Below, in pieces: positions 17,516 through 57,906 of a stretch of 57,906 nt of DNA; the stretch's first letter is position 1; every line of letters begins with the position of its first letter. This DNA comes from Scytonema sp. RU_4_4. Lineage in GTDB: Bacteria; Cyanobacteriota; Cyanobacteriia; Cyanobacteriales; Nostocaceae. The stretch is from NCBI GenBank assembly GCA_012031965.1, contig JAAUSC010000014.1:1-57906 (forward strand), given 5' to 3'. Both the position numbers and the translations under genes were made by a program. The notes below the pieces were generated by a model, which saw nothing but the letters and a program-made list of their open reading frames with translations, ran no database searches and was not told where the DNA came from.

Positions 17516-17522
17516 TATAAAG

Positions 17523-17561: not shown

Positions 17562-17712
17562 TTTCATAACTTTGGTTCTTCTGCATTCAGCAGCTAAATC
17601 AATAGAAAATCAAAAGAATATTCTTAACAAGAAATCATATTAATTTAGCTATAGCAGTCCTAGATGATTCGTAAGAGTCTCTATCAGAACAAAGATATTC
17701 ATACAAAAAATA

Positions 17713-33094: not shown

Positions 33095-33883
33095 ATGTGC
33101 CGATTACTTGCCTACCTCGGTTCACCTGTTTCTTTAGAACCTCTGTTGTACAAGCCTGAACACTCACTTGTTGTTCAAAGCTACCAACCCCGCGAAATGC
33201 TCTCAGGGGTGGTAAATGCTGATGGCTTTGGTGTTGGTTGGTATCATCCTCAAAAAGAAACTGAACCGTTTACTTATAAAAATACACTGCCGATTTGGAA
33301 TGACATTAATCTGCCAAGCCTTAGTCGTTACGTTGAGTCCGGTTGTGTGCTAGCCTATGTTCGCAGCGCTACACCAGGTCAAGCACTCGATTTAAGTAAC
33401 TGTCAGCCTTATCAGTATCAGCGTCTGCTATTCATTCATAATGGTCGAATAAACAAGTTTCGGCAGACACTCTACAGACCAATACGCAACTTGTTAAGCG
33501 ATGAAATTTACCAATGGATAGGGGGAACAACAGATTCAGAACATATTTTTGCCTTGCTACTAAACCAATGGCAAGCTAACCCTGGTAAAAGTCTAGAGCA
33601 GGCTTTACAAAAAACGCTGCTTCAGCTTCAAGAGTTAGCGCAAAGTTATCAAACTTATGTTTTAGCGAACGTAGTCATCAGTGACGGACATCGCCTCATT
33701 GCTTCTCGCTTTAGCACAAAATCACCTGCTCCTTCTGTGTACTGGATTGCTGACGATCCAAATTTTCCTCAGTCCGTGATCATTGCATCAGAACCACTGT
33801 TTGCTGGAAATTGGATTTCATGCCCTGAGAATAGCATTATCAGTGTTGGAGAAGACTGTGATATCAGAATTGAGCAAATCTAG
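33095..33883 (+). CDS. egtC: Ergothioneine biosynthesis amidohydrolase EgtC
   Basis: Class II glutamine-amidotransferase-fold enzyme of 262 residues. The N-terminal MCRLLAYLG gives the nucleophilic Cys2 after Met removal. NADGFGVGWY, YVRSATPG and FIHNGRI are the expected family segments. In mycobacteria EgtC removes the gamma-glutamyl group from the sulfoxide intermediate. Its 3' end overlaps egtB by about 26 bases. Many bacteria that use cysteine directly lack it; its presence suggests a gamma-glutamylcysteine route here. Confidence 0.92.
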   Translation: MCRLLAYLGSPVSLEPLLYKPEHSLVVQSYQPREMLSGVVNADGFGVGWYHPQKETEPFTYKNTLPIWNDINLPSLSRYVESGCVLAYVRSATPGQALDLSNCQPYQYQRLLFIHNGRINKFRQTLYRPIRNLLSDEIYQWIGGTTDSEHIFALLLNQWQANPGKSLEQALQKTLLQLQELAQSYQTYVLANVVISDGHRLIASRFSTKSPAPSVYWIADDPNFPQSVIIASEPLFAGNWISCPENSIISVGEDCDIRIEQI

Positions 33884-35234: not shown

Positions 35235-35417
35235 CCCTCTTCTGTCAGTCTGGGAAAAGAAAAATAAGAGCCAAATTTTCAACTGTAGATAGAGCGAGCA
35301 TTTGAGCGTTTATTTTCGTTCCAGAATGGCTGAAATCAAGATTTTTGGTAAAAGTCTTATGCTGGAAGCATCCCAGATTATTCTCTTCCGAAAGTGATAA
35401 AAGAGGGTTAAGGACTC

Positions 35418-35449
35418 GTTTGTAGTAGTGTTTAAGCGCTACTACAAAC
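35418..35449 (+). terminator. Hairpin downstream of egtB
   Basis: GTTTGTAGTAG and CTACTACAAAC arms, 10-base loop, about 180 bases after the egtB stop. It may terminate the egtCB transcript. Confidence 0.45.
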
Positions 35450-35450
35450 T

Positions 35451-35488
35451 CATTGACGTACTCCCCGGCATAAATGCACGGGGATTGT
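35451..35488 (-). repeat. Orphan IS200/IS605-like end
   Basis: CATTGACGTACTCCCCG ... CGGGGATTG with an internal hairpin, the same layout as the right end of the TnpB element at 27423-27464. No transposase nearby. Confidence 0.45.
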
Positions 35489-35655
35489 TAAAGGATGTAT
35501 AAGTTGTTAATTTAATGGGAAAATCCCAAAATATAGCACAAACGCCTAATTAATCTTGCTCAGGTGTGATGTTATCGGGTATGTCTTTGTGTTTTCCTAT
35601 TTCAGGATTGTCATCTGCGAACAAAAATCACTTATCGCAAGCAAACGGAGGTTTA

Positions 35656-36702
35656 ATGACACTATCTCATGGTGCCAGCAACAAGATCAGTTCTCAAAAC
35701 ACTGTTGAAACACGCTTAAAAATTAAGCGTTTGTTAGAACCTACCTTGATTGTTTCTCCCAGTGCTGGAAATGATGTCGTTAAGGGATTAACTCAAACAC
35801 CTAAGTCCTTACCCCCTCGTTACTTCTACGATGACTTTGGTTCTGAGCTATTTGAGCAAATTTGTGCGTTAAGCGAATATTATTTGACACGGACAGAAAC
35901 GGCAATTTTGCAACAGTACGCTAGTGAAATAGCGCAGATAACAGGTTCTTGCGAACTAGTGGAACTTGGTAGTGGTAGTTCTACCAAAACACGCATTTTA
36001 CTAGATGCATATCATCAATTTGGCTACTCTCTGCGTTATCTACCAATTGACGTGAGTGCAGGTATGTTGGAAAGCAGCGCTCTTGCGCTACTAGAAGATT
36101 ACCCCACATTACAAGTTCAGGCTCTTGCAGGAACTTATGAAATGGCGCTGACACAACTCGAACCGACTCAATTACCCACCAGGATGATTTGTTTTATCGG
36201 AAGTAGTTTAGGTAATTTGAATTCCCAAGAGTGTGATGTCTTTTTCTCTCAAATGACAGATGCTCTTGAGGTGGGAGAGTATTTCTTGTTGGGAGTAGAC
36301 TTGCAAAAACCAAAACATTTGTTGGAAGCTGCCTATAATGATAGCCAGGGAGTCACAGCGGCATTTAATCTCAATATGTTGCAGCATTTAAATTGGCGAT
36401 TTGAGGGCAATTTTGATACGACACAATTTGAACATTGGGCGTTTTATAACGAAACGGAAAACCAAATCGAGATGCATCTGAAAAGTGTGCGATCGCACAC
36501 TTTTCAATTACGCTCCCTGAACCTGAATGTTCATTTTGAAGCAGGCGAAACTATCCTCACTGAAATTTCCCGCAAATTTGACGTTAATTCTATCCAACAT
36601 GAGTTAAAAGCAAAGGGTTTAGTACCACAAAGGGTATGGACTGACTCAAATCAGTGGTTTGCTTTGTTACTGTGTCAACTGCAATCATTGACAGCAGTTT
36701 GA
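35656..36702 (+). CDS. egtD: L-histidine N-alpha-methyltransferase EgtD
   Basis: SAM-dependent trimethylation of histidine to hercynine, the first ergothioneine step. It has 348 residues from ATG 35656, which has GGAGG 4 bases upstream; the frame is open 30 codons further but that stretch lacks family similarity. Motifs are PPRYFYDDFGSELFEQICALSEYYLTRTE near 53-81, SAM motif VELGSGSSTKTRILLDAY near 105-122, PIDVSAGML, and FIGSSLGNLN. It is separated from egtCB by about 420 bases, so it is probably transcribed on its own. Confidence 0.93.
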   Translation: MTLSHGASNKISSQNTVETRLKIKRLLEPTLIVSPSAGNDVVKGLTQTPKSLPPRYFYDDFGSELFEQICALSEYYLTRTETAILQQYASEIAQITGSCELVELGSGSSTKTRILLDAYHQFGYSLRYLPIDVSAGMLESSALALLEDYPTLQVQALAGTYEMALTQLEPTQLPTRMICFIGSSLGNLNSQECDVFFSQMTDALEVGEYFLLGVDLQKPKHLLEAAYNDSQGVTAAFNLNMLQHLNWRFEGNFDTTQFEHWAFYNETENQIEMHLKSVRSHTFQLRSLNLNVHFEAGETILTEISRKFDVNSIQHELKAKGLVPQRVWTDSNQWFALLLCQLQSLTAV

Positions 36703-43707: not shown

Positions 43708-45207
43708 TTAAAGAATAGGCAGGTGTGTTTGAGATGAGCGTCTGACTCTGATAAACAGCAGAGCCAGGTAACTCATAATAAAAATCAAGGCGCTGTAGTA
43801 AAATAAGTTGCTATAGGCTAAAGCGACTGCTTGCTGATTGTCCTTCAAGCTAGGATTAGAAATATAAAATGCTTGCAGGCGCTGAAGCATGATGGTTAGC
43901 CCAGCAATGCCAACACTACCTCCTAACTGGTGGATCAGGTTAAATAGACCAGAGGCAGAAGCTCTTTTATCTTTGCTCACACCACCCACAGTTGCTGAAG
44001 ACATAGGCACAAATACTAATCCCAAACCAATTCCTCGCCAGATTTGCGGCCAAAATAAATCCCAGTAGCCCGATTGCATTGTTAAATGGCTCAATTGCCA
44101 GGTACCAGCACTGGCAAAAGCAATTCCTATTCCTATCGGAATCCGGGGATCTAAGCGATCAGCGAGCAGACCTGCTAATGGCATCACTAAACCCGTCGCC
44201 AAAGTTCCAGGCATCAGAGTCATACCGATTGCCAAGGCGTCATAATGCAGGATTTGACTCATAAACAAGGGCAAGATAAACAAAATGCCAAAAAGGATAA
44301 AGCCAGTCAAAACTGCGAGAATGTTGCCTGCGACAAAAGTCAGATTGCTAAATACTGATAAATCGATAATCGGATAGCGAGTGACTAGTTCCCGGTAGAC
44401 CAGATATGTGAGAGCTAAAACCCCAACTACGAGTAGGCTAATGATGAGCTTAGACTGTAACCAATCCTGCCGTTGCCCAGATTCCAAAGCATATTGTAAA
44501 CTGGACAAACCTATAACTAAAGCAATCAGACCAGGCCAATCAAATTTCCCTTGGGGTTTATTGATGTAAGGTGGATTGTAAATAAAAAGAATCGCCATCA
44601 CCGCAGCAATAATGCCAAGAGGTATATTGATAACGAAGATTGCGCGCCAGCCGAATATATCTGTTAAATAGCCTCCCAATACAGGGCTAAGAGTCGGACC
44701 AACGAGTGTCCCTACACCAAGAATACTCATGGCTTTGCCATGTTCTTCTTGAGGAAAAGTTTCCAACAAAATAGCCTGAGAACTTGGCAGCAGAACCCCA
44801 GAACTCAATCCCTGAAGAATACGAAAGAACACAAGAACCGGTAAATTCCAGGCAAGCCCACATAATAAAGAGGCAACAGTAAATAAAATGATTGCTCCTG
44901 CAACAGACTGTTTGCGACCCCACAAGGCGATAATATAGCCATTTAGGGGCATGACTATCACATTACTAATGATGTAAAAAGTGACTACCGAACTGATTTC
45001 ATCAATTGAGGCTCGAAAATCAGTTTGTATTTGAGGAATTGCAACGTTGACAATGCTGGTGTCAATCACTGCAAGTAAGCTGCCGAGTAGGATAGCTATT
45101 GTGACCAACCACTTATTAACAGGTGGTTGTGAAAGGGGCAAATTCTCTTGAGGAGATTCAAGAGAAGATTTCTTCTTCCGGCGTTGAAAAAATTTGCTTC
45201 GCACCAT
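43708..45207 (-). CDS. DHA2-family multidrug exporter (EmrB/QacA type)
   Basis: Major facilitator with 499 residues and 14 predicted membrane helices. The first helix motif LLAVIDTSIVNVAIPQIQTDF is the DHA2 signature. LWGRKQSVAGAII is motif A, and ILQGLSSGVLLPSSQAILLETF and LVGPTLSPVLGGYLTDIFGWRAIFVINIPLG contain motif C. It exports small hydrophobic compounds using the proton gradient. It is co-oriented with aroH and tyrA, and with the P450/ligase cluster further along, so it may export that cluster's product. A basic N-terminal tail precedes helix 1. Confidence 0.93.
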   Translation of the reverse strand: MVRSKFFQRRKKKSSLESPQENLPLSQPPVNKWLVTIAILLGSLLAVIDTSIVNVAIPQIQTDFRASIDEISSVVTFYIISNVIVMPLNGYIIALWGRKQSVAGAIILFTVASLLCGLAWNLPVLVFFRILQGLSSGVLLPSSQAILLETFPQEEHGKAMSILGVGTLVGPTLSPVLGGYLTDIFGWRAIFVINIPLGIIAAVMAILFIYNPPYINKPQGKFDWPGLIALVIGLSSLQYALESGQRQDWLQSKLIISLLVVGVLALTYLVYRELVTRYPIIDLSVFSNLTFVAGNILAVLTGFILFGILFILPLFMSQILHYDALAIGMTLMPGTLATGLVMPLAGLLADRLDPRIPIGIGIAFASAGTWQLSHLTMQSGYWDLFWPQIWRGIGLGLVFVPMSSATVGGVSKDKRASASGLFNLIHQLGGSVGIAGLTIMLQRLQAFYISNPSLKDNQQAVALAYSNLFYYSALIFIMSYLALLFIRVRRSSQTHLPIL

Positions 45208-45762: not shown

Positions 45763-46413
45763 CTAGACAATTCTATGCAATCTCGAGCGGCTTGGATGTT
45801 CCAGACGACGACGACACAGAATTAACCAAGCACTTACTTGTAACAACCCAAATATCAATGCTGGTTCGGGAATTTTCTCAATTCGGGTTTGGACTGTTCC
45901 TGAAAATGCCGTTTCACCAAGAGTGGTAGGGAAGTCCACATTTGGGTAGACATCAACTGTTGCAGTGCTTGGGACTGAAGTTGGTAGTTCTCTAGATTCC
46001 TCAAACGTCCCCTTTGGATAATGAAAATAAGTTACAAAGCTATACTGAGACTCTGGCTCCCGTTGAGAAGCACGCACCTCCAACAGAAAATCGTCGGTTT
46101 CTGGTGCTGTAATACCATCTTGACCTTGACGTACTAAAAAAACAACCGCATTACCAGTTGTTCCCTCGTAAACTTCTCCATCACCCAAGTCAACTTTGTA
46201 CTCTTTCACCGCATCATAATAAATGGTAGAGATGGATGAATCCTCAGTACCCTGAGCGGAGTCGTCATAGATAAAGTAACCGTTGGCTTCCTCGCTCGAA
46301 AAGCTGTATTTGAATAAAGCAGCTTGAGCAGCATCTGTAGCAAAGCTTGCTAACGCGAGAAACGCGGCGGCGCTACTGGCTGCAGCTATCGATAATTTCT
46401 TCAACAGAGTCAT
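45763..46413 (-). CDS. PEP-CTERM protein, tandem copy 1
   Basis: 216 residues. The signal peptide (about 1-31) has sequence MTLLKKLSIAAASSAAAFLA and ends DAAQA. The domain starts ALFKYSFSSEEANGYFIYD and is beta-rich. The C-terminus IEKIPEPALIFGLLQVSAWLILCRRRL carries the PEP motif, a membrane segment and a basic end, the signal for exosortase-type processing and surface anchoring. This copy has a Cys and few Gly in the segment, unlike copies 2-5, and a different tail. Function of the mature domain is unknown. Confidence 0.9.
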   Translation of the reverse strand: MTLLKKLSIAAASSAAAFLALASFATDAAQAALFKYSFSSEEANGYFIYDDSAQGTEDSSISTIYYDAVKEYKVDLGDGEVYEGTTGNAVVFLVRQGQDGITAPETDDFLLEVRASQREPESQYSFVTYFHYPKGTFEESRELPTSVPSTATVDVYPNVDFPTTLGETAFSGTVQTRIEKIPEPALIFGLLQVSAWLILCRRRLEHPSRSRLHRIV

Positions 46414-46494
46414 TGGAGTTCTCTCTACATTGATATGGTTTGCAAATCCAGTGGCTGAGTGCTGTCACTCGAACCACAAGCAGTTAGCAAAGAA

Positions 46495-47151
46495 TTAACC
46501 CCTGCAAGTTTGAGCACATACTTTGAGTTGTGTTTTTTGGCGCTGGCGACGACGTAGGATGAACCAAGCACCCGTTCCCAACAATGCGACCGATGATGTT
46601 GGCTCAGGAATCTTCTCCAGCCGAGTTGTCACGCTTCCTCGAAACAATGATTCATTGTATTGCTGAGGAGCACTCGCAGTTCTGACATCAATATATGCAC
46701 CACTTGGGAGACTAGTCGGTAGATCGAAAGAGCCACCAAATGAATCCTTTTGGTAATAAAAATCCACTAGGAAAGTGGCTTCGGGATTATCTTCATCTCG
46801 AACCTCTAATCCAAAAACGTCAGCTTCGTATGAAGTTGGTATGCTGGTGTCTACAGTAGAACGTGAAAAATAGACGTTAGCATTAGCCGTTGTGCCTTCG
46901 TAAACTCCATACTCACCCAAGTCAATTTTGTACTCCTTAACCGCTTCTGGGTAGAGTTCTATGTTTGCTTCTGGGTAGGCTTTTTCCCCACGGGGGGTAT
47001 CGCTATCATAGATAACGTAACCGTTTGCTTCGCCGGAGAAGCTGAGTTTAAATAAAGCAGCTTGAGCAGCATCTGTAGCAAAGCTTGCTAACGCTAGAAA
47101 TGCGGCGACGCTACTGGCTGCAGCTATCGATAATTTTTTCAACAGAGTCAT
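46495..47151 (-). CDS. PEP-CTERM protein, tandem copy 2
   Basis: 218 residues. The signal peptide is nearly identical to copy 1. The middle differs: GEANGYVIYDSDTPRGEKAYPE and DVFGLEVRDEDNPEATFLVDFYYQKDSFGGS. The end RLEKIPEPTSSVALLGTGAWFILRRRQRQKTQ is a textbook PEP-CTERM. The leader GAGAGAACTCC before the ATG is shared with the other copies. Repeated signal peptide and leader point to tandem duplication. Confidence 0.92.
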   Translation of the reverse strand: MTLLKKLSIAAASSVAAFLALASFATDAAQAALFKLSFSGEANGYVIYDSDTPRGEKAYPEANIELYPEAVKEYKIDLGEYGVYEGTTANANVYFSRSTVDTSIPTSYEADVFGLEVRDEDNPEATFLVDFYYQKDSFGGSFDLPTSLPSGAYIDVRTASAPQQYNESLFRGSVTTRLEKIPEPTSSVALLGTGAWFILRRRQRQKTQLKVCAQTCRG

Positions 47152-47240
47152 GGGAGTTCTCTCTACATCAATATGGTTTGCAAATTCTTCAGTTGCTCAG
47201 TTTTGGGAAATTGAGCAGCAAGCAGCGGGCAAAGAATCAG

Positions 47241-47900
47241 CTACTGCAAATTTGGGATGCAGTTTTGCAGTTGTGCTTGTCGGCGCTGACGATATCGCAG
47301 AATGAATCCAGCGCCTACTGCTAATAATGCTGCAGATGATGTTGGCTCAGGAATCTTCTCTATCTTGGTTGTCACGCTAGATCGCAACAGTGATTCGCCC
47401 CGGTCTTCTGTGGTTTCTCCTCCAGTCACATTTGGTTTGATATCAATATATCCAGCACTAGGGACACTCGTTGGTAGCTCTACAGATTGACCAAATGAAC
47501 CCTCTTGGAAGTAAAAATCTGCCCAAAAAGCGCTGGAATCAGAAGTCTGAACAACCAAAGAGAAAACGTCTGAGTCATATTCAGCAGGTATCTCAGGGTT
47601 TATATCAGAACTTATAAGATAAATATTCGCATCAGCAGTTGTACCCTCGTAAAGACCTAAACTGCCCAAATCAACTTTGTACTCCTTAACTGCATTAGGA
47701 TAGAAAGCACGGTTTGATATCGACGCGTATTGCGGATCTGGCTCGGTGTCAGTGTCATAGATAAAGTAACCGTTCGCGTCCTCACCGGAGAAGCTGTATT
47801 TATACAGAGCAGCTTGAGCGGCATCTATACCAAAGCTTCCTAACGCCAGAAACGCCGCAGCACTGGCAGCAGCTAGTGATAATTTCTTCAACAGAGTCAT
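47241..47900 (-). CDS. PEP-CTERM protein, tandem copy 3
   Basis: 219 residues from ATG 47900; the frame is open 11 codons further, but the shared MTLLKKLS start and leader mark 47900. The domain has the repeated KYSFSGEDANGYFIYDTDTEPDPQYA and LYEGTTADANIYLI elements. The end KIEKIPEPTSSAALLAVGAGFILRYRQRRQ gives the PEP-CTERM. Mature domain of unknown function. Confidence 0.92.
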   Translation of the reverse strand: MTLLKKLSLAAASAAAFLALGSFGIDAAQAALYKYSFSGEDANGYFIYDTDTEPDPQYASISNRAFYPNAVKEYKVDLGSLGLYEGTTADANIYLISSDINPEIPAEYDSDVFSLVVQTSDSSAFWADFYFQEGSFGQSVELPTSVPSAGYIDIKPNVTGGETTEDRGESLLRSSVTTKIEKIPEPTSSAALLAVGAGFILRYRQRRQAQLQNCIPNLQ

Positions 47901-47995
47901 TGGAGTTCTCTCTACATCAATTATGGTTTGCAAATTCAGTTGCTGCTCTCAAAGAATCTGAGCAGCAGGCAGTAGTAGTCGTCGTCGGCAAAGAA

Positions 47996-48667
47996 TTAGT
48001 TACTGCATGTTTGGGTTGTCATTTTGAGTTGTGTTTTTTGGCGCTGGCGACGACGCAGGATGAACAAAGCGCCTGCTCCCAATAATGCGACTGATGATGT
48101 TGGCTCAGGAATCTTTTCTATCCGAGTTGTTGCATTTCCTTGATACACTGACTCGCCCCTAGCGTCTCTATCTGTCGCATCAGTTGAAAATGGCTTGACA
48201 TCAATGAGTGCGCCGCTACTTGGGACACTAGTCAGTAGCTCAGTAGATTCACCAAATGCACCCTTCTCATAATAAAAATCGACTATTATACTTTGCCCAG
48301 CCTCAGAACTAGGAATCAGGAATTCAAAAACATCAGAGTCGTATTCAGGAGGTATATCAGGGTTTACCTCAGAGCGTAAAAGATAAACGATCGCATCACC
48401 TGTGTTGCCCTCGTAAACCCCGTAGTCGCCCAGGTCAACTTTGTAATCAACAACCGCCCCGTTATAGACATCACTGTTTGGTGTTTCAGCGTATTGCGGG
48501 TTTGGGGCGGTGTCAGTATCATAGACAAAATAACCGTTCGCACCCTCGCTGGAGAAGCTGTATTTGAACAGAGCAGCTTGAGCAGCATCTGTAACAAAGG
48601 TGCCTAATGCCAGAAATGCTGTAGCAGTGGTTACAGCAGCCATAGATAATTTCTTCAACAAAGTCAT
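47996..48667 (-). CDS. PEP-CTERM protein, tandem copy 4
   Basis: 223 residues from ATG 48667 (MTLLKKLSMAAV). It shares ALFKYSFSSEGANGYFVYDTDTAPNPQYAET with copy 3, then YKVDLGDYGVYEGNTGDAIVYLLR. It ends IEKIPEPTSSVALLGAGALFILRRRQRQKTQ. The C-terminal segment is almost identical to copy 2, while the centre is closer to copy 3, so recombination between copies is possible. Confidence 0.92.
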   Translation of the reverse strand: MTLLKKLSMAAVTTATAFLALGTFVTDAAQAALFKYSFSSEGANGYFVYDTDTAPNPQYAETPNSDVYNGAVVDYKVDLGDYGVYEGNTGDAIVYLLRSEVNPDIPPEYDSDVFEFLIPSSEAGQSIIVDFYYEKGAFGESTELLTSVPSSGALIDVKPFSTDATDRDARGESVYQGNATTRIEKIPEPTSSVALLGAGALFILRRRQRQKTQLKMTTQTCSN

Positions 48668-48769
48668 GAGAGTTATCTCTATGTAAAGATGGGTTGTTTG
48701 GAAAAACTGGGAAAATATACGTAATTTTCCCAGCTTGTATAGAAGCATACGAAACTTTGATCAGGTTAA

Positions 48770-49477
48770 TCAATCAGAAGTTTGTACTGGTTGTACTGTT
48801 TGAACTTTTTTCTGCTGGCGACGACGCAAGATGTACCAGGTACCTACACCTAACAATGCTGCCGAGGTTGCTGGCTCAGGAATTTTCTCTAGCCTAGTTG
48901 TCACGCTTCCTTCAAACGTATAGTCTCCCGTTGAATTCGGGTAATCCCAGTATGGGTATACTCTCACTCGCGCCGAGTCCGGAAGGCTCGTTGGTAGCTC
49001 ATTCTCTCCTGTGGCTCCTTCAGAGTAAGTTCCTATGGTTCCTTCAGGGTAACTAAAGCGAATTGACAAACCATATTGGGAGTCACGAGAAGCTGGAGGT
49101 ACGTAAAGGATGAAGTTGTCTTGATTCGTACCCTCGTAGCCGCCAAAGGTATCCCAAGGACCTTCAAGATAGACGACGTTTCTTGCTTCATCATGTACAT
49201 CTGCCTGCGATCCCCTTGTGCCAGAAGCAGATGTACCATCGGCGAAACTCACAGAATACTCTAAAACTGAGCCATCGTATTCACCAAGATAGCCTTCAGA
49301 GCCAGGAGGCTCAGTTTTCGTAGTCTCTGTATCGTAGATAAAGTATCCGTTGGCTCCCTCACCTTCAAAAGTGAATTTAAACAGGGCAGCTTCAGCAGGA
49401 GTACTACCAACTGTTCCCACTACAAACGCTGCAGCACCAGCTGCAGCAGCGAGCGAAAATTTATTCAACAAACCCAT
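48770..49477 (-). CDS. PEP-CTERM protein, tandem copy 5 (most divergent)
   Basis: 235 residues from ATG 49477 (MGLLNKFSLAAAAGAAAFVV). The domain ALFKFTFEGEGANGYFIYDTETTKTEPPG is recognisably related but longer, with a Gly/Ser-rich SFADGTSASGTRGSQADVHDEA loop and Tyr-rich middle. It ends LEKIPEPATSAALLGVGTWYILRRRQQKK. As the first gene of the array on the minus strand it may be the ancestral or leading copy. Confidence 0.92.
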   Translation of the reverse strand: MGLLNKFSLAAAAGAAAFVVGTVGSTPAEAALFKFTFEGEGANGYFIYDTETTKTEPPGSEGYLGEYDGSVLEYSVSFADGTSASGTRGSQADVHDEARNVVYLEGPWDTFGGYEGTNQDNFILYVPPASRDSQYGLSIRFSYPEGTIGTYSEGATGENELPTSLPDSARVRVYPYWDYPNSTGDYTFEGSVTTRLEKIPEPATSAALLGVGTWYILRRRQQKKVQTVQPVQTSD

Positions 49478-50259: not shown

Positions 50260-51402
50260 TTAGTGGCGAACAAGAACCCTATCCTCTTCTAAAGAAAAAC
50301 TAACTGGAGGAGTGGGGGCAGATCCGAGTGCAACATCACCCCAACGCATCACGCTAGCACCTGCATTGGATGAGGAACCCATTGTGTAAACAAGAACCAG
50401 ATCGTTTTCCTTAATTTTACCGGCATGTGCGGCGTGGTAGAGATTAGCAACGGGGAATGTTGGTCCAATGTTGGCATACAGGGGGTTGAGGTTGATGGTG
50501 CGCTCTGAGTCGATACCTAATGCACGCGTGCAAACTTTTGAATACCAAGCACTGGGTGTATTAAAAACAAAAAAGTCGATATCATCCAAAGTCAGACCAG
50601 CATCGGCGATCGCCCCATGACAGCACAGACGAATAAACTTCACTGTTGTCTCGTTGAACATCTTGCTTGCACCCTTACCGCCCCGGATGAACATCTTGAC
50701 ATTGCCTTGCTCATCGGTCGTAAATTCATTGTAGAAAGCACCACACGTAGAAGCAGTATTAGCAATTTTGGTCCCGAGAATTCCTTGGTCCTCTTTGAGC
50801 GCACTCACGACAAATGCTCCTGCACCGTCACCTGATAAAAATGCGAGAGTATCATTTTCGTCAGTATAACGAGAGTAAGTTGTCGAAACGACCACTAGCA
50901 CGTTGCTGTATTGTTGTCTTTGCACTAATGCACAGGCACTTTGGAGCGAAACCAATGCACTGGTGCAGGTTGATTCAATATTCCATGCTGCACCTTCCAT
51001 CCCCAGTTTACCAGCGAGGAAGGCGGCGTTACCTGGTGTGACTTGCTCTGGGAATAGGGAGGTGACAAGTAAGAGATCGATGTCATTGGGGGTGAGCTTT
51101 GCTGCTTCAAGAGCATCGATAGCTGCGCCATACTCCAGCGACAGCGAGGTTTCTTCCGGAGCGACAACCCGCCGTTCGACGGTACCCCGGAAGGGGTCTG
51201 ACATATACGGCGCTACCTCTTGTGACCAGATGTCATCGTCGTTGCTGATTGTGGAGTTGTCAGGTACAAACAGCTTTGCCAAGGTTTTTTGCTCAGCTCG
51301 AGCAACCAACTCTGGGTAATGCTCTCTGTAGTAATCGTTGGTGCGAATGATGCTGGGAAACTTGACTGAGATTGCACGAATACCTGCTGGACATAATTTC
51401 AT
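50260..51402 (-). CDS. KAS III-like (FabH/chalcone-synthase fold) condensing enzyme
   Basis: 380 residues, longer than FabH (about 320). The nucleophile Cys146 lies in NIESTCTSALVSLQSA. LSGDGAGAFVVSALKE is the usual GDGAGA loop. At the position of FabH His (PHQAN) the sequence is FFVFNTPSAWYSK, so the His is replaced, apparently by Asn281. The other active-site Asn is kept as Asn311 in YANIGPTFP. Extra N-terminal sequence (about 20-75) carries an acidic loop. Such enzymes make or break C-C or ester bonds between acyl groups. It starts 2 bases after the ThDP gene stop, so the two are tightly coupled. Confidence 0.88.
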   Translation of the reverse strand: MKLCPAGIRAISVKFPSIIRTNDYYREHYPELVARAEQKTLAKLFVPDNSTISNDDDIWSQEVAPYMSDPFRGTVERRVVAPEETSLSLEYGAAIDALEAAKLTPNDIDLLLVTSLFPEQVTPGNAAFLAGKLGMEGAAWNIESTCTSALVSLQSACALVQRQQYSNVLVVVSTTYSRYTDENDTLAFLSGDGAGAFVVSALKEDQGILGTKIANTASTCGAFYNEFTTDEQGNVKMFIRGGKGASKMFNETTVKFIRLCCHGAIADAGLTLDDIDFFVFNTPSAWYSKVCTRALGIDSERTINLNPLYANIGPTFPVANLYHAAHAGKIKENDLVLVYTMGSSSNAGASVMRWGDVALGSAPTPPVSFSLEEDRVLVRH

Positions 51403-51404
51403 GA

Positions 51405-53216
51405 TTATTCTCCTTTTGATTCTAAAATGGCACCTTGTTTGATCAAACTCCGAATACGACCGCCAATTGGTGCAGGTCGGGAGGAGTCAATGGTCACATC
51501 AACAACAAATGGACCGGTTGATGAAATTGCTTTTTTTAACGCTAGTTCTAGGTCTGACTCTGTTTCCACACGGACGCCGTCTGCTCCCATCGCTTTGGCG
51601 TACATGGCAAAATCTGCAGTTGGGATAGTCGTATCTACGCCTTTGAATCCCTGCAACGACATCCCTTGGGCGCACATGTTGTAGCGTCCATCGTTCAGTA
51701 CAATCCACACAGCGGGAATCTGAAATCTCACAGCTGTACTGATTTCATTGTTCATTAGCATTGCTCCGTCCCCAACAATGGCGACGACTTTGCCATTTCG
51801 TGCTAATGCAGCACCCACGACTCCGGTGACAGCATGACCCATAGCCCCGACACCAGTACTGATACGGTAACGACCTGGTTGAGTAAATCGCAGCAAATTT
51901 GTTGCCCAAGCAAAGGAATTACCCGCTTCAGCCATGATTAGAGCATCGCTTCCTTCAACAATGAACCGTTGAATTGCATTCATCAGTGCATCGGGTCGTA
52001 CTAAGCCATCTGTGTGTGGAGCGATCGCATTACTTTCAGGATGAGGCAATGTTGATGTCGGTGACCAATTCAGTCGCTCTGGCAAGTGTTTCAGTAGATT
52101 TTTCAGAAACACTTTGACTTCTGAGTGGATAGAGAAAGTCGGTACTGATGGATAAGCCACTCCTGGCACTTCCGGATCGATATCCACATGAACAAATCCA
52201 CTAGCAGGAACCATTAACGGATTCCAGAATGAAGTCGGCTCACCCAGGCGGGTTCCCAGCACGAGGATGCGCTGCGGATGTTTTTCCTGCATGTACTTCA
52301 AAACAGACTCATGTCCACTAAAGCCTGTGACACCAAGATACTGGGGATGATTCTCTGGAAAGATGCCTTTACCACGGGGTGATGTCATCACCGCTGCGCC
52401 TGTTCTTTCAGCCAACTCAAGGATTTCCTGTGCGGCGTGTCGCGCACCAAAGCCAACCCAAATGGCAAAGGATTCTTCTGAGAACAACCGCACGCATTCG
52501 GCGATCGCTTCCTCACCAGCAGTTGGTACAGAATAAGAAAACTCTGGTAGTGAGAATTGTGCTTTCAGGGGGGTCATCTGAAGAGGGGTTGGGATACTAA
52601 TATGGGCGACAAAACCCCCCGGTTGTGCTAATCCAAGAGCAAGTCGGCGAGAAATTTCTGGGATTTCATCTCCAGACTCTACGGTAGTCGCATAATTGAA
52701 CAGTGCGCCTGAGGTAAAAATACCTGAGATAGGCATTGTGTGGGCACTCGTTTCCTGACAAGCCCACCGACCGCGATTTCCAGAAGGGGTTGCAGCCGAT
52801 AAAAGAATAACCTTCGCTCCTTCTCCTCGTGCGGCGAAAAGCCCAGTGAGTACGTTTGTAATGCCAGGTCCTGTGGTCGTGAACACCACGACAGGGCGAC
52901 CACTTGCAAAATGAGCTTCGCAAGCTGCAAAAGCTGCTCCTGATTCATGGCGAAAATGAAGGACTTGGATTGGGCTGCGATCCAACGTTGCCCAGAGTGG
53001 TCCAATACCGCCCCCAGAGACGCCAAAAGCATCGCGCACTCCAAGATTTTCGAGGACTTTGACAACAGCTTCTCCTACTGTCTGTTGTGCTGCTTCTAAC
53101 TGACTAGACTGTCCATTAGAGGATGGCTCAGAGGAATCTGTGGGCGGCGAGAAAATAGAAGAGCCAGCTGAATATTCAACTGAAGTATAGTTGGATTTGG
53201 TATTAGTAAGACTCAT
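51405..53216 (-). CDS. ThDP-dependent acetolactate synthase-like carboligase
   Basis: 603 residues. A Ser/Thr-rich N-terminal tail of about 45 residues precedes three ThDP domains. The PYR domain has catalytic Glu91 in HFRHESGAAFAA and TTTGPGITNVLTGL. The central domain covers about 220-390. The PP domain carries GDGAMLMNNE at 482-491 with Asn508 in VLNDGRYN for Mg-ThDP. The family decarboxylates an alpha-keto acid and adds the acyl anion to another carbonyl, as in acetolactate synthase or ScyA of scytonemin synthesis. Substrates here are unknown. Start ATG 53216 with GAGG upstream. It is 32 bases from the ligase gene. Confidence 0.92.
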   Translation of the reverse strand: MSLTNTKSNYTSVEYSAGSSIFSPPTDSSEPSSNGQSSQLEAAQQTVGEAVVKVLENLGVRDAFGVSGGGIGPLWATLDRSPIQVLHFRHESGAAFAACEAHFASGRPVVVFTTTGPGITNVLTGLFAARGEGAKVILLSAATPSGNRGRWACQETSAHTMPISGIFTSGALFNYATTVESGDEIPEISRRLALGLAQPGGFVAHISIPTPLQMTPLKAQFSLPEFSYSVPTAGEEAIAECVRLFSEESFAIWVGFGARHAAQEILELAERTGAAVMTSPRGKGIFPENHPQYLGVTGFSGHESVLKYMQEKHPQRILVLGTRLGEPTSFWNPLMVPASGFVHVDIDPEVPGVAYPSVPTFSIHSEVKVFLKNLLKHLPERLNWSPTSTLPHPESNAIAPHTDGLVRPDALMNAIQRFIVEGSDALIMAEAGNSFAWATNLLRFTQPGRYRISTGVGAMGHAVTGVVGAALARNGKVVAIVGDGAMLMNNEISTAVRFQIPAVWIVLNDGRYNMCAQGMSLQGFKGVDTTIPTADFAMYAKAMGADGVRVETESDLELALKKAISSTGPFVVDVTIDSSRPAPIGGRIRSLIKQGAILESKGE

Positions 53217-53248
53217 AAAAAAACCTCTTTTTTGTCTTAAGTTATTAA

Positions 53249-54772
53249 TCAGTTAGTGACAGCAGTAGCTAAGTGCGATATTGATTCCGCCCGTAAAACT
53301 CGCTTCAGGACTTTACCAGTTGGGTTCTTAGGGAGTGAATCTACAAAGTGAATCAGACGGGGGACTTTGTAAGTTGCCATTCTTAGAGAACAGAATTCAA
53401 TAATTTGTTCTTCTGTGAGTGCGTGACCGGGCTTAAGTACGATGTTTGCCTTGACTCTCTCTCCTTTCAAATCATCAGGTACGCCATAAACTGCACACTC
53501 AGCAACTGCTGAATTTTGGTAGATGACATTTTCAACTTCACTCGGATACACCTTAAATCCAGAAACGTTGACCATATCTTTTAAGCGATCAACGAGATAG
53601 AAAAAGCCATCTTCGTCCACGCGACCGATGTCGCCAGTATGAAACCAACCATTTTTAATCACTTCAGCAGTTTCAAACGGGCGATTCCAATAGCCAAGCA
53701 TGACATTTGGTCCGCGAATGAGTATCTCACCCGACTCGCCTGGTTGGACTTGATGACCATGACCATCAACAACTTTCATTTCCACGTTTTCAATCGGAGT
53801 CCCGATGGAGCCAACTTTATATTTTAGGTCATGGTTATAACAAGCACATGGTGATGTTTCGGTCATTCCATATCCTTCATGAATGACTTTTCCGTATTTA
53901 TCTAGCCATTTCTGTGCAACTTCAGCTGGCATGGGTGCTGCTGCTGAGAAATAATAACGTAAGCTCTGGAGATTTTCAAAAGAGGTGTCTGTATTCAGCA
54001 GTTCTATAAAAATTGTCGGTACACCAAAGAACATTGTGACCTGATGGGTGCTGATAGCCTCAAAGACCTGCTCAAGCTTAAATCTGCGCTGCATGATAAT
54101 GGTGGCACAGACGTTGAGTCCAGCGTTGAGAATAGCGTTTTGACCAAAGCAATGAAACAGCGGGAGGAAAAGCAGCAATCGGTCATCCGGTCGCATTCCA
54201 CAACAACGGTTATGGGAATACATATTGGAAATGACGTTACCGTGAGAAAGGGTTGCTCCTTTTGGGAAACCTGTTGTTCCTGATGTGTAGACGATACTCG
54301 CAGGAGCGTGGCGATCCATTTCGACAGCACGCGCTTCTGGGGAAGCACTTTCCATGACTTGTGCTAAAGTTATTCCCTTGGTTGCTTGACCTTCTGCAAT
54401 CAAAATGTGTTGCAGTTCGCTTAAGTCTCCTTCTGGCACCTGTTCGCTTTGCAACTCTGTTGTGATTATGGCTTTGGCTGCACAATCATTGAGAATGTAG
54501 CTAACTTCAGCACTTTTGAGCATCACGTTGACTGAGACAGCAACAGCACCAATTTTGAGAATCCCAAGATAAGAAATAATGAATTCTGGGATGTTTGGCA
54601 AAAATAAGGCTACGCGATCGCCTTTATTAATTCCTAATCCTCGTAAACCATTTGCCACGCGATTGGCTAGCTGGTTAAGCTCTTTGTAAGTAAAAGATTT
54701 ATTCTCAAAAATCAGAGCTGTTTTGTCGGGAAATAACAGATGACCCTGTTCTATGTGATGTGCGATGTTCAT
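53249..54772 (-). CDS. AMP-forming acyl-CoA ligase (long-chain / 4-coumarate type)
   Basis: 507-residue ANL enzyme. The P-loop is SIVYTSGTTGFPKGATLSH at about 159-177. GYGMTETSPCACYN is A5, and HTGDIGRVDEDGFFYLVDRLKDMVNVSGFKVYPSEVE spans A7-A8. The C-terminal PTGKVLKR has catalytic Lys487. It activates a carboxylic acid as acyl-AMP and transfers it to CoA. The sequence fits medium/long-chain fatty acyl or aryl-propenoyl ligases equally; it cannot be decided by eye. In the operon it probably supplies the acyl partner. Confidence 0.93.
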   Translation of the reverse strand: MNIAHHIEQGHLLFPDKTALIFENKSFTYKELNQLANRVANGLRGLGINKGDRVALFLPNIPEFIISYLGILKIGAVAVSVNVMLKSAEVSYILNDCAAKAIITTELQSEQVPEGDLSELQHILIAEGQATKGITLAQVMESASPEARAVEMDRHAPASIVYTSGTTGFPKGATLSHGNVISNMYSHNRCCGMRPDDRLLLFLPLFHCFGQNAILNAGLNVCATIIMQRRFKLEQVFEAISTHQVTMFFGVPTIFIELLNTDTSFENLQSLRYYFSAAAPMPAEVAQKWLDKYGKVIHEGYGMTETSPCACYNHDLKYKVGSIGTPIENVEMKVVDGHGHQVQPGESGEILIRGPNVMLGYWNRPFETAEVIKNGWFHTGDIGRVDEDGFFYLVDRLKDMVNVSGFKVYPSEVENVIYQNSAVAECAVYGVPDDLKGERVKANIVLKPGHALTEEQIIEFCSLRMATYKVPRLIHFVDSLPKNPTGKVLKRVLRAESISHLATAVTN

Positions 54773-54823
54773 GATAAAAAAGATTCTTTTTGTTTAATGG
54801 TATTTATTTAGTAAAACGACAAA

Positions 54824-56251
54824 TTAATTAGTTATTAATGTCTTTTGAGTATCTTGTTGATTCATTTGCCCAAGCTCTGCTCTTGGCTCCAATGTCATCA
54901 GGATGCCGTGGCGTGTTTGCAGGGTGAGCAGCGGATTTCGCTCGACTGGGTATTCAGGCACCAAGTTCAGACGAAACTGTTGAGACACCATAGCAACAAC
55001 TAACTGAATTTCAGTCAAGGCAAAGATATCGCCTAAGCACTGACGTGAGCCGCCGCCGAATGGAAAGTAAGCATAGCGTGGACGATTAGCAGATTGTTCT
55101 GGCGAAAAGCGCTCAGGATCAAAACCTTCGGGGTTATCCCAGAAAGCTGGGAGGCGGTGCGTTACAAATGGACTCAGTAAGAGCATTGAGCCAGCCGGGA
55201 TATGATAACCGCCGATTACGTCGTCTTTCAAGTTATTGCGGGCGTACACCCAAGCACCTGGGTAAAGCCGCATTGCTTCTTGGACAACCATTTTGGTATA
55301 TTTCAGGTTCGGCAGGTCTTCAAAGGTTGGGGTTCGCCCGCTCAGTACCGTAGAAAGTTCTGTTTGCACCTGGCGTTCTACACTGGGATGCTTAGAAAGC
55401 AAGTACCAGATCCAGCTCAGCACTGCACCAGAGGTCTCAAATCCAGCGGAGAATAGTCCGACTATTTGGTCGTGCAGTTGCTGATCGCTCAAACCCTCGC
55501 CTGACTCATCGCGGCTACTCATCAACATTGAGAGTATGTCATTAGGAGCGTTGTTACCTTTACCTTGCTGACGTTCCCGGATGATTCGGTTGGCGGTTGT
55601 GCGCAGTGTGTTTATTGCTTGTAGAAACTGGCGGTTTTTCGGTGTGGGGAAGCTGATAGGTGGCTTGAAGACAGCCCACAGGCGATCGCTCAGGAACTTG
55701 TATATGGTATTCCATGCTTGAATCAGCTCTGTGGTATCGCTGCTGGTGTCGATACTCAACGTCGTCTTCAGAAGCATTTTCTGCGTCAGTTCCAGCATCT
55801 CGTCATATGCATCAAGCGTTGCGCCGCGTTCCATTTGGGACCAGCGTTCCAGCATCTGGGCGATGACTGTAGTCATGTCACTAACCATTGCTGCGATTTG
55901 CTGGCGGTGAAAACTCGGCTGCATCAGGCGACGCTGGCGACGCCATGAATCGCCCTCACTAATCACCAAGCCCTCGCCGATGACCAGCTTCATTTCTTGA
56001 AAATTTTCACCTTTTGTGTAGTTCTGGGGATTTTCTTGCAGAACATGCTTCACACAATCCGGGTGAGCAATCAGGTAAAGTTGTTGCGGACCGATTGATC
56101 CCAGGTGGACAACATCGCCATACTCACGCGCAGCATTGGTCAGGAACTGAAGCGGATTTGACGCCATTTGCGGAAAGCAGCCAATAATGGGGAGACCGCG
56201 TGGACCAGGAGGAGTTTTGTGGACACTTGGGTAGATACTCTGTTTAACCAT
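54824..56251 (-). CDS. Cytochrome P450 (second of three tandem copies)
   Basis: 475 residues without a membrane anchor. It has the Pro-rich start PPGPRGLPIIGC, C-helix WRRQRRLMQP, I-helix FSAGFETSGAVLSW with the acid-alcohol pair ET, and QEAMRLYPG (ExxR). The heme loop FPFGGGSRQCLGD has thiolate Cys405. It closely resembles the cyanobacterial CYP110-type family from memory. It would use ferredoxin and O2 to hydroxylate a product of the operon. It is 15 bases from the next P450 gene, so co-transcribed. No dedicated redox partner is seen. Confidence 0.93.
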   Translation of the reverse strand: MVKQSIYPSVHKTPPGPRGLPIIGCFPQMASNPLQFLTNAAREYGDVVHLGSIGPQQLYLIAHPDCVKHVLQENPQNYTKGENFQEMKLVIGEGLVISEGDSWRRQRRLMQPSFHRQQIAAMVSDMTTVIAQMLERWSQMERGATLDAYDEMLELTQKMLLKTTLSIDTSSDTTELIQAWNTIYKFLSDRLWAVFKPPISFPTPKNRQFLQAINTLRTTANRIIRERQQGKGNNAPNDILSMLMSSRDESGEGLSDQQLHDQIVGLFSAGFETSGAVLSWIWYLLSKHPSVERQVQTELSTVLSGRTPTFEDLPNLKYTKMVVQEAMRLYPGAWVYARNNLKDDVIGGYHIPAGSMLLLSPFVTHRLPAFWDNPEGFDPERFSPEQSANRPRYAYFPFGGGSRQCLGDIFALTEIQLVVAMVSQQFRLNLVPEYPVERNPLLTLQTRHGILMTLEPRAELGQMNQQDTQKTLITN

Positions 56252-56266
56252 GATGCTTTCCTTGCT

Positions 56267-57676
56267 CTACATTTTTTGTAATGTTAGTTCACGGCTTTTT
56301 CGTGGTTCCAATGTCATCGGTAGACCGTGCAGTGCTCGTAGTACGTGTCTTGTATCAGGTTCGACCGGATGTCCAGGCACCAGATTCAAGCGCAATTGTT
56401 GAGATATCATGGCAATAATCAACTGCATTTCAGTCGTCACAAAGACTTCCCCTATGCATTGACGTGGACCACCGCCGAATGGTAAGTAGGCAAAGCGTGA
56501 GCGGTCTGCAGAGCGTTCCGGCGACCAGCGCTCAGGCTCAAATTTGTCAGGGTTTTCCCAGAAATTTGGGAGGTGTTGCGTCACATATGGACTCAGTACA
56601 ATCATGGAGCCAGCCGGGATATGATAACCGCAGATCTCATCGTCCTCTACGTTGTTCATGCTTAAGATCCAGACAGCCGGATACAGCCGCATCGTTTCCT
56701 GAATAATCATTTTGGTATATTTCAGGTTCGGCAAGTCCTCGAAGGTCGGGGTTCGCCCGCCTAGTACCGCAGTGAGTTCTTCTTGCAGCTTGGCTTCTAC
56801 GTTGGGATGTTGGGAAAGCAAGTACCAGATCCAACCAAGTGTGGTAGCCGATGTATCAAACCCAGCGACAAATAACTCCACAATCTCGTCACGCAGTAGC
56901 TCATCGCTTGAACTCTCACCAGACTCATCGTGTGCATTCATGAGCAACGAGAGTATGTCGTTATAATCGTTACTGCCTTGTTTGCGTTCGCGGATGATCC
57001 CGTACACAATTGTGTCAATTGTCTGTACTGCTTGTAGAAACTGCACGTTTCTCGGTGTGGGGATGCTCAAAGGCACTTTGAAAAAAGCCCAAATGCGCCG
57101 GGTGTGGAAGGCTAAGACAGTACGCCACGCCTGAATGATTTGGTCGGTTTCCTTGCTGTTGGTATCAAGACTCAACAACGCTTTGATGACAATCTTCTGC
57201 GACAGCTTCAGCATTTCGGCAGCAACATCAATTTGTGCATTCTCAATGCTGCGCCATTGTTCCAGCAACTCCTCAATAACATCAGTCATGAGGGTGAACA
57301 TAGCTGAGAGCTGCTGGCGGCTATGAAAGGGGGGCTGCATCACACGACGCTGGCGTCGCCAAGCCTCGCCTTGGCTGTTTATCAAGCCGTTGCCCACTAA
57401 TATGGTAAAATCTCTATCCTTAAAGTTTGCGCCTTTTACGTAGTTGTTAAAATTATCTAAAAGAACATGTTTTACACCGTCTGGATGAGCAATCAGGTAA
57501 AGCTGTTGTGGACCTATTGGTCCTAAGTGAACAACATCACCATACTCACGCGCAGCATTCGTGAGGAATTGGAGCGGCTTGGACGACATTTGCGGAAAGC
57601 AGCCAATAATTGGATAGCTGCGCGGACCAGAGGCAGTTTTTTTGTGGACGTCTGGGTAGATACTTTGTTTGACCAT
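56267..57676 (-). CDS. Cytochrome P450 (middle of three tandem copies)
   Basis: 469 residues. Same architecture as the neighbour: GPRSYPIIGC, WRRQRRVMQPPFHS, I-helix FVAGFDTSATTLGW with DT, QETMRLYPAVW, and heme loop LPFGGGPRQCIGE with Cys407. The two are clear paralogues from a tandem duplication but differ in the substrate-recognition regions. It has Asp where the neighbour has Glu in the I-helix, so the two probably oxidise different positions. The operon continues beyond the window. Confidence 0.93.
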   Translation of the reverse strand: MVKQSIYPDVHKKTASGPRSYPIIGCFPQMSSKPLQFLTNAAREYGDVVHLGPIGPQQLYLIAHPDGVKHVLLDNFNNYVKGANFKDRDFTILVGNGLINSQGEAWRRQRRVMQPPFHSRQQLSAMFTLMTDVIEELLEQWRSIENAQIDVAAEMLKLSQKIVIKALLSLDTNSKETDQIIQAWRTVLAFHTRRIWAFFKVPLSIPTPRNVQFLQAVQTIDTIVYGIIRERKQGSNDYNDILSLLMNAHDESGESSSDELLRDEIVELFVAGFDTSATTLGWIWYLLSQHPNVEAKLQEELTAVLGGRTPTFEDLPNLKYTKMIIQETMRLYPAVWILSMNNVEDDEICGYHIPAGSMIVLSPYVTQHLPNFWENPDKFEPERWSPERSADRSRFAYLPFGGGPRQCIGEVFVTTEMQLIIAMISQQLRLNLVPGHPVEPDTRHVLRALHGLPMTLEPRKSRELTLQKM

Positions 57677-57824
57677 CTTTAAAGACTCACTTGCAGATCA
57701 ATTAGATAAGGTCTAGATGTAGAGGTAAGCTCATACGTTTTTAAATTGCATCTTTTTCGTTGTGTCTGTCCAGAGTTAAGAGTCAAAAACCTCTGGACTA
57801 TCGACTTTTGACTTGCCTACCCAA

Positions 57825-57906
57825 TTAAACCCTTAACTGCTGATCCACTTTGGAGTCGTTGGCAAAACTAGAGCGTGGCTCTAATGTCATCAGAACGCCG
57901 TGGCGT
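57825..57906 (-). CDS. Third P450, C-terminal fragment cut by the window end
   Basis: The last 26 codons before the stop at 57825-57827. It reads RHGVLMTLEPRSSFAND..., matching the C-terminal RHGILMTLEPRAELG of the P450 at 54824. The rest lies outside the window. So at least three P450 paralogues are arranged in tandem. Confidence 0.85.
   Translation of the reverse strand, partial: RHGVLMTLEPRSSFANDSKVDQQLRV

What the first reader, a model, noticed from the sequence alone, without database searches (positions are those of the whole stretch)
50260..57906. Tight operon of three P450s, acyl-CoA ligase, ThDP carboligase and KAS III-like enzyme: an unassigned biosynthetic cluster
Gene spacings are 2 to 51 bases over most of the operon. 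The set lacks PKS/NRPS modules, so standard cluster finders may miss it. An acyl-CoA ligase, an alpha-keto acid-coupling ThDP enzyme and a Claisen-type enzyme could build a small ketone or lactone core, which P450s then oxidise. From memory, the cyanobacterin (furanolide) pathway uses a similar ThDP plus ketosynthase-like logic, but I cannot compare sequences and three P450s are not a feature I recall there. Product unknown.
Basis: partly seen in the sequence, partly recalled or inferred. Interest (0 to 1): 0.85.

Follow-up and report, generated by a model that had tools for sequence, protein, structure and literature searches.

The report
Cyanobacterial furanolide gene cluster with P450s
This stretch of a cyanobacterial genome most likely makes a member of the furanolide family, small lactones that include a natural plant and algal poison, and it carries oxidising enzymes and exported proteins that the papers at hand do not describe for this family.

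Summary
Real, and larger than reported. The window is a whole contig. Its right end overlaps contig C267 of the same genome by 370 bases, which supplies the complete third P450, the only aromatic ammonia-lyase found and a DAHP synthase. Downstream lie five exported paralogues, an MFS pump, a chorismate mutase and a prephenate dehydrogenase. Lyase, CoA ligase, ThDP enzyme and KAS III-like enzyme are the published furanolide core (CybB/C/E/F), 65-80% identical to a locus whose gene content and length match the maculalactone cluster. So it is assigned: a furanolide pathway, probably using coumaroyl-CoA and an arylpyruvate, with P450s as likely tailoring enzymes. No held paper has both 'furanolide' and 'P450'. 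Less expected is the exported family: no Pfam match in the three of five scanned, a confident beta-rich model without significant PDB match. Strong matches occur in 16 of 217 family genomes, exactly those whose KAS is at least 79% identical, next to KAS in 15; weaker relatives occur in seven others. Product and exported-protein function are unknown.

The parts
57825..57906 (-). 3' end of P450c; complete copy on contig C267 (L040:289-1704, minus strand)
   Evidence: 370-base contig overlap; same C-terminal residues on both contigs
56267..57676 (-). cytochrome P450 a (469 aa)
   Evidence: PF00067 309.5 bits; AGxDT, ExxR and FxxGxxxCxG motifs present
54824..56251 (-). cytochrome P450 b (475 aa), the copy found in related clusters
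   Evidence: PF00067 310.1 bits; 94% in L228, 80-82% in L068, L069, L071, L250
53249..54772 (-). acyl-CoA ligase, CybC/MacC-like (507 aa)
   Evidence: PF00501 355.8 bits; 74% to the mac-like locus; AMP-binding motifs present
51405..53216 (-). ThDP-dependent carboligase, CybE/MacE-like (603 aa)
   Evidence: NF035927 ScyA-related 1024.1 bits, cut-off 1000; below the ScyA cut-off (940.4 of 1020)
50260..51402 (-). KAS III-like furanolide synthase, CybF/MacF-like (380 aa); Cys146 and Asn311 kept, FabH His position is Asn281
48770..49477 (-). exported protein SP1 (type A), signal-like N-terminus and PEP-CTERM tail; start chosen at the MGLLNK Met
   Evidence: TIGR02595 24.3 bits, cut-off 16; AlphaFold2 pLDDT 89.1
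47996..48667 (-). exported protein SP2 (type B); start chosen at the MTLLKK Met
47241..47900 (-). exported protein SP3 (type B); start chosen at the MTLLKK Met
   Evidence: no Pfam match
46495..47151 (-). exported protein SP4 (type B)
45763..46413 (-). exported protein SP5 (type B); mature part modelled as a beta-rich domain
   Evidence: no Pfam match; AlphaFold2 pLDDT 94.9, pTM 0.89
43708..45207 (-). DHA2-type MFS efflux pump
   Evidence: TIGR00711 389 bits, cut-off 230.2; 75% homologue at the same place in L232; none matched in the sister cluster L228
43156..43590 (-). AroH-type chorismate mutase
   Evidence: TIGR01796 150 bits, cut-off 82; PF07736
41793..42989 (-). TyrA-type prephenate dehydrogenase (would supply 4-hydroxyphenylpyruvate)
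   Evidence: NF008400 292.7 bits, cut-off 273; PF02153, PF20463

Best explanation
A furanolide (gamma-alkylidene butyrolactone) biosynthetic cluster of the cyanobacterin/maculalactone family, in a P450-bearing form. DAHP synthase, AroH and TyrA push carbon into chorismate, prephenate and 4-hydroxyphenylpyruvate. The ammonia-lyase makes 4-coumarate from tyrosine (the substrate is inferred) and the CoA ligase activates it. The ThDP enzyme joins two alpha-keto acids, one of them an arylpyruvate, in an acyloin-type condensation. The KAS III-like furanolide synthase fuses that product with the cinnamoyl-type CoA thioester by O-acylation and ring-forming C-C bonding to give the lactone. P450b, and in this genus also the divergent copies P450a and P450c, then oxidise the phenolic lactone. 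The MFS pump exports it. The clade-specific exported beta-rich proteins act on or bind it outside the cytoplasm. Shown by sequence: gene content, order, core homology, motifs, conservation. Inferred from published relatives: every core reaction step. Inference without direct support: P450 targets, pump substrate, exported-protein role.
For: All four signature genes that PMC13288894 uses to define furanolide clusters are present and co-directional, counting the C267 overlap. Locus L240 has the published mac gene content (DAHPS, HAL, CoAL, ThDP, KAS, chorismate mutase, tyrosinase, two unknowns, a flavin-reductase-like and a PcyA-like gene; 11 genes from 2811 to 18360, about 15.5 kb; the paper gives 11 genes and 15.5 kb). 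The window's genes are 79, 80, 74, 65 and 66% identical to its DAHPS, HAL, CoAL, ThDP and KAS. macBCEF alone made maculalactones in E. coli (PMC13288894 section 2.2). Enhygromyxa salina SWB005, which PMC8777810 says holds cybE and cybF homologues (passage), holds the adjacent pair in L137 at 48 and 42%. In 114 KAS rows the active-site Cys is kept in 111 and Asn in 113; the FabH His column is N in 94. In the KAS tree of 66 of these rows the window sits in a supported 15-row clade, apart from FabH. A P450b-type gene lies just upstream of the CoA ligase in 8 of 15 examinable genomes of the 16 that share this clade.
Against: No product is known, and E. coli work shows that the mac core needs only four genes, so nothing here proves that the P450s act on the furanolide. 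Seven of the 15 examinable clusters of the clade show no P450, and the tree needs three changes of the P450 label, so P450s come and go. The lyase's selectivity pair (Tyr-His where A. variabilis PAL has Phe-Leu) matches neither textbook PAL nor TAL as I recall them; and some tyrosinase-bearing clusters (L049) also have Tyr-His, so the link of the pair to substrate rests on two proxies. The MFS pump has no match in the sister cluster L228. The authentic cyb sequences and the 2022 cyanobacterin paper were not available.
Confidence: 0.85

Rival explanations
1. A scytonemin-type or other ScyA pathway: the ThDP enzyme couples two aryl precursors and the KAS-like enzyme does something else.
For: ThDP is 940.4 bits to the ScyA model. 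Scytonemin also pairs a ThDP enzyme with PEP-CTERM proteins, ScyE and ScyF (PMC4870267, passages).
Against: It scores below the ScyA cut-off (1020) and above the ScyA-related cut-off. The partners are an ammonia-lyase, CoA ligase and KAS, as in furanolide clusters.
Confidence: 0.04
2. Furanolide core as stated, but the P450s serve another pathway or act on precursors (for example hydroxylating cinnamate or an aryl unit before assembly) and do not tailor the lactone.
For: P450s sit between lyase and CoA ligase, where cinnamate is made. No P450 is seen in 7 of 15 examinable clusters of the clade.
Against: Three diverging copies (55-62% identical to each other) suggest several oxidation sites. 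P450b keeps about 80% identity in the same place in L068, L069, L071 and L250. Neither point names a substrate.
Confidence: 0.2
3. The exported-protein genes are cell-surface genes that are linked to the cluster but play no part in making or handling the furanolide.
For: They start 782 bases downstream of KAS, far more than the core gaps. Weaker relatives, most of them full-length, occur in 7 of 217 genomes that lack this KAS clade. mac and macBCEF gave the same products in E. coli (PMC13288894), and the mac-like locus holds a different gene that reads like an exported protein.
Against: Exact co-occurrence of strong matches with the KAS clade in 16 of 217 genomes, 65-2248 bases from KAS in 15 of 16. 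In an order-wide set of 291, strong matches are only in the own genome and G233, which also has the cluster.
Confidence: 0.15

Closest known systems
maculalactone (mac) cluster, Nodularia sp. NIES-3585 (PMC13288894: abstract, introduction, first part of results and passages read)
   Same: DAHPS, lyase, CoA ligase, ThDP enzyme, KAS and chorismate mutase; 65-80% identity to the matching locus L240
   Different: mac has a tyrosinase, a flavin-reductase and a PcyA gene; the word P450 does not occur in that paper. The lyase pair is Phe-Leu in L240, here Tyr-His. The exported-looking gene in L240 is of another kind
cyanobacterin (cyb) cluster, Tolypothrix sp. PCC 9009 (PMC8777810 passages; 2022 paper not held)
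   Same: CybB, C, E, F logic; the lyase pair Tyr-His is shared with the cyb-like locus L247
   Different: L247 has an O-methyltransferase-like gene, an NmrA-type protein, two Rieske-type genes (one confirmed by Pfam, one by likeness) and a halogenase-like gene; no P450 and no exported-family gene matched there. PMC8777810 does not hold the word P450
nostoclide N (ncl) cluster, named in PMC13288894
   Same: Said there to hold the four core genes
   Different: Not compared: sequence not at hand
enhygrolide/deoxyenhygrolide loci of myxobacteria (PMC8777810 passages)
   Same: Adjacent ThDP and KAS genes (L137; 48 and 42%); a P450 frame lies about 2 kb after the KAS (32% to P450a)
   Different: No lyase or CoA ligase matched in the fetched 21 kb; the KAS keeps a His at the FabH His position; its P450 falls outside the P450a/b/c group
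scytonemin cluster (ScyA with PEP-CTERM proteins ScyE, ScyF; PMC4870267 passages)
   Same: ThDP enzyme of the ScyA group and exported PEP-CTERM proteins next to it
   Different: No KAS, lyase or CoA ligase logic there as I recall it; ScyE belongs to the beta-propeller clan, the proteins here model as one beta-rich domain of about 150-170 residues

Membership tests
furanolide biosynthetic clusters | aromatic ammonia-lyase (CybB) | tested here: met
   L040:1737-3440, PF00221 500.8 bits, only match found in the genome; on the overlapping contig, not in the window
furanolide biosynthetic clusters | cinnamoyl/coumaroyl-CoA ligase (CybC) | tested here: met
   53249-54772; AMP-binding family; 74% to the mac-like ligase; substrate not testable
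furanolide biosynthetic clusters | ThDP enzyme of CybE type | tested here: met
   NF035927 over cut-off; 65% to L240, 68% to L247
furanolide biosynthetic clusters | KAS III-like furanolide synthase (CybF) | tested here: met
   66% to L240, 63% to L247; tree position
furanolide biosynthetic clusters | product is a gamma-alkylidene butyrolactone | not testable with these tools
   needs expression and LC-MS/NMR
furanolide biosynthetic clusters | direct sequence comparison with authentic CybE/CybF | not tested
   record BK059219 was not looked up; proxies L240, L247 and L137 used instead
scytonemin cluster (ScyA) | ThDP enzyme over the ScyA equivalog cut-off | tested here: not met
   940.4 of 1020 bits
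FabH / beta-ketoacyl-ACP synthase III | Cys-His-Asn triad and FabH model cut-off | tested here: not met
   His replaced by Asn281; NF006829 120.5 of 249, TIGR00747 117.6 of 292.1

The most novel reading that the evidence does not exclude
The exported proteins are a new class of furanolide-dedicated extracytoplasmic proteins: secreted beta-barrel-like domains, one to five copies per cluster, that bind, display or finish the P450-oxidised lactone at the cell surface, as a carrier, a store or a coupling guide. Making the presumed allelochemical and handling it outside the cell would be encoded as one unit.
Probability: 0.3. Interest if true: 0.8.

Novelty: new variant of a known kind. Interest (0 to 1): 0.62.

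Why it matters
Furanolides include cyanobacterin, described as a potent phytotoxin (PMC13288894, introduction). The two clusters compared here are tailored otherwise: cyb has the halogenase CybI, mac carries a tyrosinase gene. Hydroxylated furanolides as such are known, but a P450 route to them was not found in the held papers; this cluster names testable enzymes for one. The closely linked exported-protein family opens the question of how cyanobacteria export, store or finish such compounds; the scytonemin system has predicted-exported partners whose exact role is also open (PMC4870267).

Tried and rejected
Scytonemin membership: rejected on the ScyA cut-off and partner genes. Ordinary FabH: rejected. 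The three tandem P450s on contig C8 as part of the operon: rejected, they match these P450s at only 22-29% and show no exact end overlap with the window or C267 (that exact test also missed the C267 overlap, which one search found by alignment). The multicopper oxidase that follows TyrA in several relatives: in the own genome the match is on C123 and I saw no cluster genes beside it, so it is left out of the parts. Fold of the exported proteins: Foldseek finds nothing at E 0.001 or better in PDB for either model, nor in viral models for the first. The top PDB rows for SP5 include avidin-type barrels at TM about 0.4, and both lists show entries of fungal cycloaddition enzymes (Fsa2, CghA; lipocalin-like as I recall); too weak to name a family. 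Dirigent or allene-oxide-cyclase idea: no support found (one search returned no papers; no such PDB row among the 50 shown). Papers: furanolide with P450 gives 0, furanolide synthase 2, furanolide with genome mining and cyanobacteria 2. These cover only the open-licence library.

Rows dropped or unseen: 34 of 36 exported sequences listed went into A3 and 32 into A4. The P450 tree leaves out frames of 350 aa or less, so L230 and L231 are missing. The lyase dipeptide was read in 31 of 35 rows, some of them one locus fetched twice; 4 did not match the search pattern. The searches for the exported family scored at most 10 or 13 candidates per genome. One of the 16 genomes (G383) has a contig too short to judge for P450s; in L238 (G402) no lyase was matched in the fetched stretch. 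Three of the five exported proteins were scanned against Pfam and two against NCBIfam (the second at a strict cut). No signal-peptide predictor was run.
Full report
Observation. The third P450 is present only as its end. The window is the whole of contig C61. Contig C267 overlaps the window's right end by 370 bases with one mismatch and three one-base homopolymer differences. It carries the whole third P450 (P450c), an aromatic ammonia-lyase, the only PF00221 match found in the genome, and a DAHP synthase.

Downstream of KAS the same strand holds five paralogous exported proteins (45763-49477), a DHA2-type MFS pump, an AroH-type chorismate mutase and a TyrA-type prephenate dehydrogenase. Another genome of the same genus (G313, L228) has DAHPS 95, lyase 95, P450c 59, P450a 79, P450b 94, CoA ligase 94, ThDP 95 and KAS 92% in the same order, then a flavin-dependent halogenase-type gene, four exported proteins, chorismate mutase and TyrA, and no MFS match. 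This supports the contig join.

What it is. PMC13288894 (abstract, introduction, first part of the results and passages read) defines furanolide clusters by an ammonia-lyase, a CoA ligase, a ThDP enzyme and a furanolide synthase, and shows that macBCEF alone give maculalactones in E. coli. All four are here. The paper gives 11 genes and 15.5 kb. Chorismate mutase and tyrosinase there rest on BLAST to other loci; the flavin-reductase-like and PcyA-like names are my reading of the sequence. Window against L240: DAHPS 79, HAL 80, CoAL 74, ThDP 65, KAS 66%. Locus L247, in G313 itself, looks like the cyanobacterin cluster (O-methyltransferase-like, NmrA-type, two Rieske-type genes, halogenase-like; description of cyb in PMC8777810 passages). 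A named control, Enhygromyxa salina SWB005, said in PMC8777810 to hold cybE and cybF homologues, was found by the KAS profile and has the adjacent ThDP gene. It also has a P450 frame about 2 kb on, of another group than P450a/b/c.

Enzyme details. The KAS aligns with FabH structures with the Cys and Asn kept and Asn where FabH has His. Over the 114 KAS rows gathered, some of them one gene fetched twice, the counts are Cys 111, Asn 113, and at the His column N 94, H 9, Y 7, other 4. Of the nine H rows four are FabH-like (L146, L147, L244_3725, L245_15249); the other five are L062_8051, L100, L118, L128 and the Enhygromyxa enzyme L137. The lyase carries Tyr-His where A. variabilis PAL (2nyn; that name and numbering recalled) has Phe-Leu. 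Among 31 readable lyases of 35 rows, 22 are Tyr-His and 9 Phe-Leu. L240 is Phe-Leu, and mac products favour cinnamoyl-CoA; L247 is Tyr-His, and CybB uses tyrosine. I therefore infer a tyrosine-using lyase here. Against a simple rule, the tyrosinase-bearing locus L049 is Tyr-His. The ThDP, AMP-binding, MIO and P450 motifs are present.

P450s. Of the 16 genomes with a KAS at 79% or more, 15 could be examined. Eight have a P450b-type gene just upstream of the CoA ligase: three P450 copies each in the own genome and G313, one elsewhere, with one split by an insertion (L230) and one cut by a contig end (L231). Seven show none; five of these seven have an O-methyltransferase-type gene. A 58% homologue is also in a more distant cluster (L051). 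P450a and P450c were seen only in this genus among the fetched loci. Between the two genomes of the genus the core genes have dN 0.03-0.05, P450b 0.04, P450a 0.12 and P450c 0.30, with dS also raised in the last two (0.60 and 0.80 against 0.22-0.40). So the extra copies are diverging, or have been exchanged, while the core is stable; omega stays below 0.4.

Exported proteins. Each of the five has an N-terminus that reads as a signal sequence, an A-x-A site at residue 30 or 31 and a PEP-CTERM-like tail; only SP1 was matched to the PEP-CTERM model. Two exosortase-family genes exist in the genome. Copies in L072 and L073 lack the tail. No Pfam match was found for the three scanned. In 291 genomes of the order, strong matches occur only in the own genome and G233, and both have the cluster; 13 more genomes give weak, mostly short matches, the best E 4.5e-10 over positions 14-165. 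In 217 genomes of the family, strong matches (E below 1e-50) are in 16 genomes; weaker ones (E 7e-23 to 2e-18), most covering nearly the whole profile, are in 7 others, so distant relatives exist away from this KAS clade. The 16 are exactly the 16 whose KAS is 79% or more identical; the next is 68%. The first copy lies 65-2248 bases after KAS in 15 of 16; in the 16th the two are on different contigs. Common descent makes these counts not independent, but the 16 span seven genera. AlphaFold2 gives a beta-rich domain, pLDDT 94.9 (SP5) and 89.1 (SP1). Foldseek finds no significant PDB match for either.

Literature. 0 papers hold both furanolide and P450. Nine papers hold furanolide, cyanobacterin and biosynthesis. 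Passages only were seen of PMC8777810, PMC12395478, PMC12481558 and PMC4870267. The 2022 cyanobacterin paper is not held, so whether it lists P450-bearing clusters is unknown to me.

Verdict. A furanolide cluster by the sequence tests that could be run; a P450-bearing form with a clade-linked exported protein family. Product, P450 targets and the role of the exported proteins remain inferences.

Noticed in passing
L047:2300-5371 (contig C292 of the window's genome): A second ThDP + KAS pair (66 and 59% identical) with no lyase or CoA ligase matched on its 7.6-kb contig; the ThDP reading frame seems to depart from its relatives near the C-terminus.
   Followed up: partly
42 loci between L079 and L144: A widespread ThDP + KAS pair with no lyase matched, followed by an SGNH-hydrolase-like gene in 25 of 42 (the hydrolase name is my reading); those in the tree form a separate clade. 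Function unknown.
   Followed up: partly
18 loci such as L078, L084, L085, L139: KAS homologues without ThDP or lyase, many in open frames of about 500 aa, beside adenylating-enzyme matches (18 of 18) and, in 15 of 18, a gene that reads like a chorismate-binding enzyme; those in the tree form a distinct clade.
   Followed up: partly
L137:13150-14712 (Enhygromyxa salina SWB005): A P450 frame about 2 kb after the CybE/CybF-like pair in this myxobacterium, on the same strand (32% to P450a).
   Followed up: partly
L068:16562-19308, L069, L071, L250; own genome L199:6130-8602: A multicopper oxidase and a small exported-looking protein follow TyrA in several relatives; in the window's genome the pair is on another contig, away from the cluster.
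   Followed up: partly
L230:4816-5682 and 16107-17917: The P450 and the multicopper oxidase frames are each split by inserted genes that read like transposases in one relative's cluster.
   Followed up: no
L042 (contig C8, 4655 bases): Three tandem P450s of a different kind (22-29% identical to those here).
   Followed up: no
L076:12559-14775: A tyrosinase-bearing furanolide-type cluster carries two exported-looking proteins; the one scanned matches beta-propeller models, recalling the ScyD/E/F proteins.
   Followed up: partly
window 33095-36702: Three genes that read like EgtC, EgtB and EgtD (ergothioneine synthesis); by eye only.
   Followed up: no
window 27474-28733: An ORF that reads like an IS200/IS605-type TnpB; by eye only.
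   Followed up: no
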